NCBI RefSeq assembly: GCF_000231405.2
Contig: NZ_CP007032.1
Location: forward strand, 2,542,001-2,606,000
Origin: Desulfitobacterium metallireducens DSM 15288
Lineage (GTDB): Bacteria > Bacillota > Desulfitobacteriia > Desulfitobacteriales > Desulfitobacteriaceae
DNA length: 64,000 nt
Reading direction: 5' to 3'
Positions 5,722 through 54,692 of the stretch are shown piece by piece (position 1 is the stretch's first letter; each line of letters opens with the position of its first letter). The notes under the pieces were generated by a model. That model made no database searches, was not told where the DNA came from, and saw only the letters and a list, made by a program, of their open reading frames with translations. The position numbers and the translations under genes are program-made.

Positions 5722-5805
5722 CATTTGGTAACCTGGCAATCGTCAGCCAAACTGGACGACCCATAGCTTTGCGTCCCTGACTTTCGCCAGGTTTGCTCTT
5801 GTCAT
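5722..5805 (-). ncRNA. Cyclic di-GMP-I (GEMM-I) riboswitch
   Basis: The minus strand shows the diagnostic GEMM-I pieces in order: GCAAACC (5790-5796), a stem capped by a GAAA tetraloop (CTGGCGAAAGTCAG), GGGACGCAAAGC, a second stem, and the closing GGTTACC (5727-5733). A terminator follows at once. Known members bind c-di-GMP and often control motility and chemotaxis genes. Whether binding turns the gene on or off cannot be read with certainty here. The remaining bases up to the ArsR gene (5806-6019) are A+T-rich with no recognisable gene. Confidence 0.95.
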
Positions 5806-6019
5806 TGCTTCATATTCTTTTATCATTCTTACAAAACGACACTACACTCAATTCCACAATAATACTAAATTTCTACAACGTTTTCTATAATACGCTGTTA
5901 TTCTACATAATCAAGGAAATATTATCGTGTTATTTCGACTTTTTTTACTATATGTGGATGATATGGGCATTCAAGTTTTCTATAAATAACAAGACTAGAA
6001 CGCCGAGTGCAATAAAAAC

Positions 6020-26321: not shown

Positions 26322-26394
26322 TTTAACACCTCCGAATAGATATAGCTCGGGCTCAAGTATCTAGACTTGTCCCCAAAAAACACCGAAGAATTTT

Positions 26395-26600
26395 GATTTG
26401 CATAAGGGAACGGATTCTAAGCGAGTGGATACCAGACTTCGCGAAAAGTCCGTCGCGGAAACGGGTTGGAAACAGGACGTTTCCAAACTGGCATGGAGCC
26501 AATGACGGCGACTTTGCCAGTGTCCCGATGGAGCAAAGGACTTGAGCATTAGTCTGGTCCACGAACTTACAGAGTGACCGTTGCATAGCAAAATTCTGGA
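26395..26600 (+). ncRNA. Structured GGA-hairpin element, copy A
   Basis: G+C-rich non-coding island between dgkA and cdd. On the plus strand an outer 8-bp stem ACCAGACT/AGTCTGGT (26431-26438 with 26551-26558) encloses three elements: an inner CGGG/CCCG pairing (26462-26465 with 26524-26527); hairpin P1, TTGGAAAC-AGGAC-GTTTCCAA (26466-26486); and hairpin P2, ACTGGC/GCCAGT (26487-26492 with 26516-26521). P2 contains GCC-AATGAC-GGC, or alternatively TGGC-ATGGA-GCCA. A short hairpin GACTT/AAGTC precedes them. It aligns along its length with copy B (54474-54609), for example GCGAGT, CGAAAA and GAGCCA. The two short ORFs here (26353-26591) are not credible genes. Function unknown; transcription is not shown. 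Confidence 0.6.
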
Positions 26601-54068: not shown

Positions 54069-54142
54069 GTCTTAAAAGAGTTGAGAAGGTCTCTGGGGTG
54101 TGGATTTTGTTTACACCGTTCACTCCAGGCGCTTCGCAGACC

Positions 54143-54271
54143 GAAGCTAAGGCACTGTCTCCTTCTCTGGGTCGCGGGACGCCGCCAAAATCGTCTCCTG
54201 ACTCTGTTGGCGGTTGCTCACGTCCTGTTCGCAACCCTTTGCTTTCAAGCAGGAGCCACTGCCTAAGCTTC
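54143..54271 (-). ncRNA. Structured GGA-hairpin element, copy C
   Basis: Minus-strand copy inside the hemW-lepA island. Outer stem GAAGCTTAGGCA/TGCCTTAGCTTC (54260-54271 with 54143-54154, one mismatch). P1: GGTTGC/GCAACC (54231-54236 with 54212-54217) with CAGGACG in its loop. P2: CCGCCAA/TTGGCGG (54207-54213 with 54182-54188; the last two pairs compete with P1), containing GTC-AGGA-GAC. The segment CAACAGAG(T/C)CAGG ... CGATTTTG is nearly identical to copy B on the opposite strand. An alternative hairpin GCTTCG/CGAAGC (54131-54147) competes with the outer stem. Confidence 0.55.
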
Positions 54272-54473
54272 GATAACTGCTTGCTTAAGTCGTTCTCTCC
54301 CGTAAATCAAAATCCACGTCCAGGTCTTTCTCGCTTCTTTGTGCATGCATCCGCGGCCTTGGGTGCAGAATGCGCCCGCCGCCTCCCGAGTCATGCAAGC
54401 CGTACATGCAATAGACCCAAGAAGCTGCCCGGAGAGTTGCGAGTACAGATGCGGAGGCCTTTAGCGAGTAGCT

Positions 54474-54609
54474 AGCAAACTCGGCGAAAACTGACTTGCA
54501 TTAGCGGGGCGGGCACATGGACGTGCCACGCCGACAACAGAGCCAGGGATGGCGATTTTGTCGGGCACCCCGCCTGCTTTCATCTACCAGTCTGAGCCGC
54601 AAGTTTGCT
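54474..54609 (+). ncRNA. Structured GGA-hairpin element, copy B
   Basis: Plus-strand copy in the same island. Outer stem AGCAAACT/AGTTTGCT (54474-54481 with 54602-54609). Junction stem GCGGGG/CCCCGC (54504-54509 with 54568-54573). P1 GGCAC-ATGGAC-GTGCC (54512-54527). P2 CCGACAA/TTGTCGG (54531-54537 with 54558-54564), containing GCC-AGGGAT-GGC. TCGGCG/CGCCGA (54481-54486 with 54529-54534) is a competing pairing. Sequence blocks shared with copy A include GCGAGT, CGAAAA, GAGCCA and GGCGA(T/C)TTTG. The stretch 54272-54473 between copies C and B has other stems (CTTGGGT/ACCCAAG, 54358-54421) but no credible gene; the short ORFs across it have no start signals. Confidence 0.6.
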
Positions 54610-54692
54610 TTGCGAGCGCCCGGCCGGAGCAGCTGTAATCGCAATTCGCCCCAGGCTCTTGCTCAATAAAGATCTCCAGCGCCCCACCGAAA

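What the first reader, a model, noticed from the sequence alone, without database searches (positions are those of the whole stretch)
54143..54609. A structured element family with covarying stems, two oppositely oriented copies in one intergenic island
Seen in sequence: copy C (minus, 54143-54271) and copy B (plus, 54474-54609), together with copy A at 26428-26560, share the same layout. Outer stems differ but pair: AGCAAACT/AGTTTGCT (B), GAAGCTTAGGCA/TGCCTTAGCTTC (C, one mismatch), ACCAGACT/AGTCTGGT (A). P1 differs but pairs: GGCAC/GTGCC (B), GGTTGC/GCAACC (C), TTGGAAAC/GTTTCCAA (A). P2 differs but pairs: CCGACAA/TTGTCGG, CCGCCAA/TTGGCGG, ACTGGC/GCCAGT. Inside P2, GCC/GGC in B becomes GTC/GAC in C, a compensatory change. 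What stays fixed are GGAC in the P1 loop and GAG(C/T)C...CGA(T/C)TTTG. Covariation in several stems over three copies is strong evidence for selection on an RNA or single-strand fold. I do not recognise it with certainty as a named family.
Basis: seen in the sequence. Interest (0 to 1): 0.85.

Follow-up and report, generated by a model that had tools for sequence, protein, structure and literature searches.

The report
Dispersed repeats with CsrA-type RNA hairpins
The window carries copies of a roughly 220-base hairpin element that is scattered about 30 times through this genome and keeps two loops shaped like the docking site of the global regulator CsrA; if CsrA really binds them, these bacteria carry a spreading, high-copy CsrA-binding element of a kind that seems not to have been described.

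Summary
Copies A, B and C are real and share one fold. A covariance model from 15 genomic copies finds about 30 copies in this genome and 18 to 65 in relatives tested closely. In 136 distinct elements, 95% of stem cells pair and 36 of 40 pairs show compensatory changes.

The family is a divergent branch of Rfam TwoAYGGAY (RF01731): same architecture, but all copies here score below Rfam's threshold. Stems vary freely while both hairpin loops keep GGA (P1 125/136, P2 134/136). P1 matches the CsrA SELEX consensus. Gardner and Eldai (2014) already proposed that TwoAYGGAY binds CsrA.

New here: the elements are high-copy, strictly intergenic, MITE-like repeats with terminal inverted repeats, empty orthologous sites and recently spread copies. 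Across 398 genomes of the phylum, 70 of 77 carriers have csrA against 215 of 321 non-carriers, and every genome with three or more hits has it.

Against a plain CsrB-like sRNA: no promoter or terminator, insertion mostly antisense to neighbouring genes, and G·U mispairs no commoner than A·C, so maintenance as a DNA palindrome is not excluded. CsrA binding and transcription remain untested.

The parts
54098..54317 (-). Element copy C: full palindromic rod with terminal inverted repeat GTGGATTTTGATTTAC / GTAAACAAAATCCAC (as read on the minus strand)
   Evidence: covariance model hit 110.8 bits (G000:C1:2596130-2596287)
54434..54649 (+). Element copy B: full rod with terminal inverted repeat GAGTTGCGAGTACAG / CTGTAATCGCAATTC
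   Evidence: covariance model hit 127.8 bits (G000:C1:2596461-2596619)
26388..26596 (+). Element copy A: full rod with terminal inverted repeat GAATTTTGATTTGCAT / GCATAGCAAAATTC
   Evidence: covariance model hit 116.6 bits (G000:C1:2568418-2568568)
54081..54666 (.). Composite unit: copy C (minus), middle hairpin, copy B (plus); ends TTGAGAAGGTCTCTGGGG / CCCCAGGCTCTTGCTCAA are imperfect inverted repeats; related units at four other places in the genome with unrelated flanks
   Evidence: alignment of seven minus-plus pairs, five of them closely related; coordinates
54353..54382 (+). Middle hairpin of the composite unit; stem sequence differs but still pairs between unit copies
   Evidence: seen in sequence, (GCGGC..GCCGC here, GCAGC..GCTGC and GTAGC..GCTAC in other units)
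54512..54527 (+). P1 hairpin of B, GGCAC[AUGGAC]GUGCC: CsrA-consensus loop ACAUGGACGU
   Evidence: SELEX consensus RUACARGGAUGU from PMC7652899
54542..54553 (+). Inner P2 hairpin of B, GCC[AGGGAU]GGC, flanked by the tandem G-A motif GA/GA
54220..54228 (-). P1 loop of C (ACAGGACGU on the minus strand)
54193..54202 (-). Inner P2 hairpin of C (GUC[AGGA]GAC on the minus strand)
26471..26481 (+). P1 loop of A (AACAGGACGUU)
26498..26509 (+). Inner P2 hairpin of A (GCC[AAUGAC]GGC), one of only 2 of 136 elements whose P2 loop lacks GGA

Best explanation
A, B and C are copies of a high-copy, MITE-like interspersed repeat. Its palindromic unit of about 220 bp encodes a TwoAYGGAY-type fold: a long rod with tandem G-A motifs that ends in a three-way junction with two hairpins, P1 and P2, each with a GGA loop of the CsrA type. 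The proposed mechanism: when the GGA strand is transcribed, probably by read-through because no own promoter was found, one element offers two high-affinity sites that a CsrA dimer can bridge, so the copies together act as CsrA-binding sites or decoys. Insertion in the sense direction within an operon would place CsrA sites in that mRNA, which would explain why sense insertions are under-represented. Shown: fold, covariation, loop conservation, dispersal, association with csrA. Inferred: transcription, CsrA binding, any regulatory effect, and the way the element moves.
For: Fold and covariation. Stems vary but GGA stays in the P1 loop of 125/136 and the P2 loop of 134/136 distinct elements, at least one in all 136. 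The near-invariant AC..GU closing pairs of P1 match the SELEX consensus RUACARGGAUGU (PMC7652899). Rfam TwoAYGGAY is the only family hit in a sensitive scan of the B-C island and gives 12 sub-threshold hits in the genome, best 37.3 bits, E 3e-4. TwoAYGGAY was already proposed to bind CsrA and to carry tandem G-A motifs (PMC4333381). The genome has one csrA with adjacent fliW. In 398 genomes of the phylum 70/77 carriers have csrA against 215/321 others (Fisher p 1e-5); the 7 exceptions have only 1-2 hits each. Within the family, copies: csrA-plus median 13, csrA-minus median 1. In csrA-minus G033 the single copy has lost GGA in both loops. Dispersal: five related units with unrelated flanks; orthologous empty sites beside fliW/csrA; 18, 45, 56 and 65 copies in four relatives, with many non-orthologous copies 92-98% identical in two of them. 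Never inside an ORF; 35 antisense against 13 sense, p 0.002.
Against: No RNA or binding data. No promoter-like or terminator-like enrichment beside the elements. Antisense placement means that host operons mostly transcribe the strand without GGA loops. 11 of 136 P1 loops lack GGA, several as ACACGAYGU. G-U is not clearly above A-C among mispairs (55 against 41). csrA travels with flagellar genes, so the association may reflect motile lineages, and the genomes tested are related. The csrA-minus bin G040 still has intact GGA loops, though it is 83% complete.
Confidence: 0.55

Rival explanations
1. A purely DNA-level mobile palindrome. The hairpin is needed as single-stranded or cruciform DNA for transposition by an unknown enzyme supplied in trans, and the loops are part of that enzyme's recognition site; the likeness to CsrA sites is accidental.
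For: Terminal inverted repeats, dispersal, empty sites and recent copies. Stems nearly perfectly Watson-Crick, with G-U about as rare as A-C. Compensated pairs outnumber G-U intermediates 43 to 10 between related elements. No promoter. Adjacent copies are head to head 19 times and tail to tail never.
Against: Does not explain why P1 reproduces the CsrA consensus with its closing pairs, why P2 independently keeps GGA on varying stems, why carriers are enriched for csrA, or why related hairpins occur as a CsrB-like tandem array in Sedimenticola. No transposase or target-site duplication was found.
Confidence: 0.25
2. Dedicated CsrB/RsmZ-like sRNA genes, each with its own promoter, whose job is to sequester CsrA.
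For: CsrA-type loops and association with csrA; tandem GGA-hairpin array in Sedimenticola.
Against: No promoter-like or terminator-like signal beyond controls; only two GGA hairpins per unit; copy number up to 65 per genome and recent dispersal are unlike regulatory genes.
Confidence: 0.1
3. Cis-acting control elements in mRNA leaders or operon spacers that let CsrA control the neighbouring gene.
For: Always intergenic; in six relatives one sits in the fliW/csrA operon region. Rfam lists TwoAYGGAY as Cis-reg.
Against: Elements are mostly antisense to neighbouring genes (35 against 13) and convergent sites outnumber divergent ones 19 to 8. All seven elements close to csrA lie on the opposite strand.
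Confidence: 0.07

Closest known systems
TwoAYGGAY RNA (Rfam RF01731), Weinberg et al. 2010 (PMC2864571); proposed CsrA-binding RNA in Gardner and Eldai 2014 (PMC4333381)
   Same: Long outer stem, two adjacent hairpins with A-N-GGA-N loops, tandem G-A motifs in a stem, Clostridia and Gammaproteobacteria range; the R1 model and RF01731 hit the same places in Lysobacter (L094) and a Clostridiaceae bin (L120).
   Different: All copies of this genome score below the Rfam gathering score (best 37.3 against 43). P2 loops are often AGGA or ANGGAN rather than AYGGAY. I found no statement in the papers read that the family is a high-copy dispersed repeat.
CsrB/CsrC and RsmX/Y/Z sRNAs of Gammaproteobacteria
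   Same: GGA in hairpin loops matching the CsrA consensus, more than one per molecule.
   Different: Two sites per unit, no promoter or terminator found, tens of dispersed copies, and the genome has FliW, the protein antagonist of CsrA.
Bacterial MITEs and palindromic repeats (ERIC, REP/BIME, from general knowledge)
   Same: Short, intergenic, palindromic, terminal inverted repeats, high copy, non-coding.
   Different: Copies in this genome diverge to about 58% median identity yet keep one multi-stem fold with fixed loops; no target-site duplication or cognate transposase identified.

Membership tests
TwoAYGGAY (RF01731) | Score at or above the Rfam gathering score (43 bits) | tested here: not met
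   Best of 12 hits in the genome 37.3 bits; copy B 25.5 bits. Relatives found by the same loop pattern in Lysobacter and a Clostridiaceae bin do pass, 47.3 and 45.3 bits.
TwoAYGGAY (RF01731) | Two adjacent hairpins with AYGGAY-like loops enclosed by a longer stem | tested here: met
   GGA in both loops of 123 of 136 elements; enclosing stems supported by covariation. The exact AYGGAY letters are often replaced by AGGA or ANGGAN.
TwoAYGGAY (RF01731) | Tandem G-A motif in a stem (noted in PMC4333381) | tested here: met
   GAG.C..G.CGA around inner P2, and GCGAGCAG/CTGCGAGC in the rod, seen
CsrA-binding RNA | GGA in a hairpin loop with the ACANGGANGU context | tested here: met
   P1 loop closing pairs A-U and C-G nearly invariant (columns 67-68), GGA in 125/136
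CsrA-binding RNA | Physical binding by CsrA | not testable with these tools
   Needs gel shift or CLIP-seq
CsrA-binding RNA | Host encodes CsrA | tested here: met
   csrA in G000 and in 70 of 77 carrier genomes of the phylum sample
CsrB/Rsm sRNA gene | Own promoter and Rho-independent terminator | tested here: not met
   (sigma-70 consensus scan only)
MITE | Terminal inverted repeats, many copies, no coding capacity, dispersal | tested here: met
MITE | Target-site duplication and cognate transposase | tested here: inconclusive
   No clear duplication at occupied against empty sites or beside the five units; no transposase search of the genome was made

The most novel reading that the evidence does not exclude
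A mobile, MITE-like element family that spreads through Firmicutes, and as relatives through Gammaproteobacteria, while carrying paired near-optimal CsrA-binding hairpins, so that copy number itself titrates or depends on CsrA. It would be an RNA-protein dependence of a bacterial repeat not described before, working alongside FliW.
Probability: 0.3. Interest if true: 0.85.

Novelty: new variant of a known kind. Interest (0 to 1): 0.64.

Why it matters
Csr sRNAs are established only in Gammaproteobacteria, and a 2020 review (PMC7652899) says it remains to be determined whether FliW and sRNAs act together on CsrA in any species. These genomes have both FliW and tens of CsrA-type hairpins, which makes that question testable. 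It also turns a little-studied Rfam family into an abundant dispersed repeat that current thresholds miss, and offers a case where structural covariation may be maintained at the DNA level, a caution for covariation-based RNA discovery.

Tried and rejected
Known Rfam family at the gathering score: rejected for these copies. Tail-to-tail pairs or an encoded protein between paired copies: no tail-to-tail pair, no plausible gene in one long spacer. Own promoter or terminator: not found. Phage or plasmid origin: no DNA match in either collection; 4 pattern hits in viral contigs, one of them (L203) at E 0.07 with the model. Excess of G-U over A-C as proof of RNA-level selection: looked for and not significant. 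Higher identity of elements than of orthologous flanks first looked like constraint, but non-orthologous copies are just as similar, so recent spread explains it.

Full report
Observation. The three copies are present as described and each folds much better than shuffled sequence. Each copy is a rod of about 210-220 nt whose ends are an imperfect terminal inverted repeat; C and B face away from each other with adjacent 5' ends and a third hairpin between them.

Family in this genome. The window is G000:C1:2542001-2606000 of a 3.18 Mb genome. A degenerate pattern of the core hits 9 times, its reversed control 0 times. Fifteen copies were aligned; RNAalifold gave 40 pairs, 29 with two-sided changes. 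A covariance model of this alignment (R1) finds 32 places at E <= 1 and 30 at E <= 1e-6. After merging neighbours, 14 of 21 sites lie between 2.32 and 3.07 Mb, an unexplained clustering.

Family elsewhere. In the order, 37 of 74 genomes carry it, all of them among the 46 of the same family. A closer search of four relatives gives 45, 65, 18 and 56 copies. In an even draw of 398 genomes of the phylum, 77 genomes in 56 genera carry it. A loose pattern of the two loops also meets many Gammaproteobacteria (Luteimonas, Lysobacter, Pseudoxanthomonas and others) and a Clostridiaceae bin. Many of these are hit by R1, and two of the 18 loci scanned pass the Rfam TwoAYGGAY threshold. Several have long, nearly perfect outer stems of unrelated sequence.

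Structure and loops. On 136 distinct elements the structure is kept at 95.1% of cells, 36 of 40 pairs have two-sided changes, and no shuffle or slid partner comes near; that alignment was fitted to the model, so pair counts lean towards it. Pairwise identity is 59% at the median, yet GGA stays in the P1 loop in 125 and in the P2 loop in 134 of 136, on stems that read GCC/GGC, GAC/GUC, GGC/GCC or GUC/GAC. The P1 closing pairs make ACANGGAYGU or ACAGGACGU, the core of the CsrA SELEX consensus RUACARGGAUGU (PMC7652899). Gardner and Eldai already proposed from motif matches that TwoAYGGAY binds CsrA (PMC4333381), so the CsrA idea itself is not new.

Link with csrA. The genome has one csrA beside fliW. 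In the phylum sample 70 of 77 carriers have csrA against 215 of 321 non-carriers (Fisher p 1e-5). The seven exceptions have one or two hits each, so all genomes with three or more hits have csrA. In the family, csrA-plus genomes have a median of 13 copies and csrA-minus genomes of 1; those csrA-minus genomes also lack fliW. In G033, which is 94% complete and without csrA, the only copy has lost GGA in both loops. These genomes are related and csrA travels with motility, so the statistics overstate independence. Seven of 35 csrA neighbourhoods have an element within about 1.3 kb, always on the opposite strand; six of the seven share one side of csrA and may descend from few insertions.

Mobility. 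Five composite units in this genome have unrelated flanks. Relatives show the same intergenic site beside fliW with and without an element. In the g3 genomes many non-orthologous copies are 92-98% identical. Elements are never inside an ORF; single copies lie antisense to co-directional genes 35 times and sense 13 times (p 0.002); neighbouring copies are head to head 19 times, same direction 14 times, tail to tail never. No target-site duplication was recognised and no transposase was identified. Five related elements, several at one orthologous site, carry a nested insert of about 52 nt in a GGA loop that is itself an inverted minimal two-hairpin unit.

What argues against a simple sRNA. No promoter or terminator signal exceeds controls. 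G-U mispairs (55) do not clearly exceed A-C (41) where neighbours are paired, and between related elements compensated pairs outnumber G-U changes 43 to 10. RNA selection usually leaves more G-U (general knowledge); arm-to-arm templated correction or DNA hairpin selection would give this pattern. Both levels may act at once.

Verdict. Real, structured, a divergent branch of TwoAYGGAY, a high-copy MITE-like repeat, and probably a CsrA ligand when transcribed. The family likeness and dispersal are well supported; CsrA binding is likely but untested; the regulatory effect is a hypothesis.

Noticed in passing
window 5723-5806 (minus): c-di-GMP-I-GGC riboswitch aptamer, 65.6 bits, above its gathering score.
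   Followed up: no
L055 1804-2008, L056 1804-2008, L062 2024-2232, L279 1880-2084, L292 1837-2022: Insert of about 52 nt inside a GGA loop; read in reverse it is a minimal two-hairpin unit with its own GGA loops, and GG appears on both sides of it. A clue to how the elements insert.
   Followed up: partly
L139 2831-2973 (Sedimenticola) and L095, L117: Tandem units of about 53 nt, each two hairpins with CAGGGAUG-type loops, resembling a CsrB-like array; tRNA genes lie nearby in L139 and L095.
   Followed up: no
L287 1501-2723 (G009): Four tandem copies of the element in one direction, period about 356 nt.
   Followed up: no
G000:C1 2.32-3.07 Mb: 14 of 21 independent element sites fall in 24% of the chromosome; reason unknown.
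   Followed up: partly
L232 9150-9310 and 7600-7700, L223 6345-6480: Truncated right ends of elements next to intact ones beside fliW/csrA, suggesting repeated insertion and loss at the same place.
   Followed up: partly
L066 1698-2240: The spacer between two head-to-head elements contains short tandem repeats encoding LILRHRFRWC-like frames, probably non-coding.
   Followed up: no
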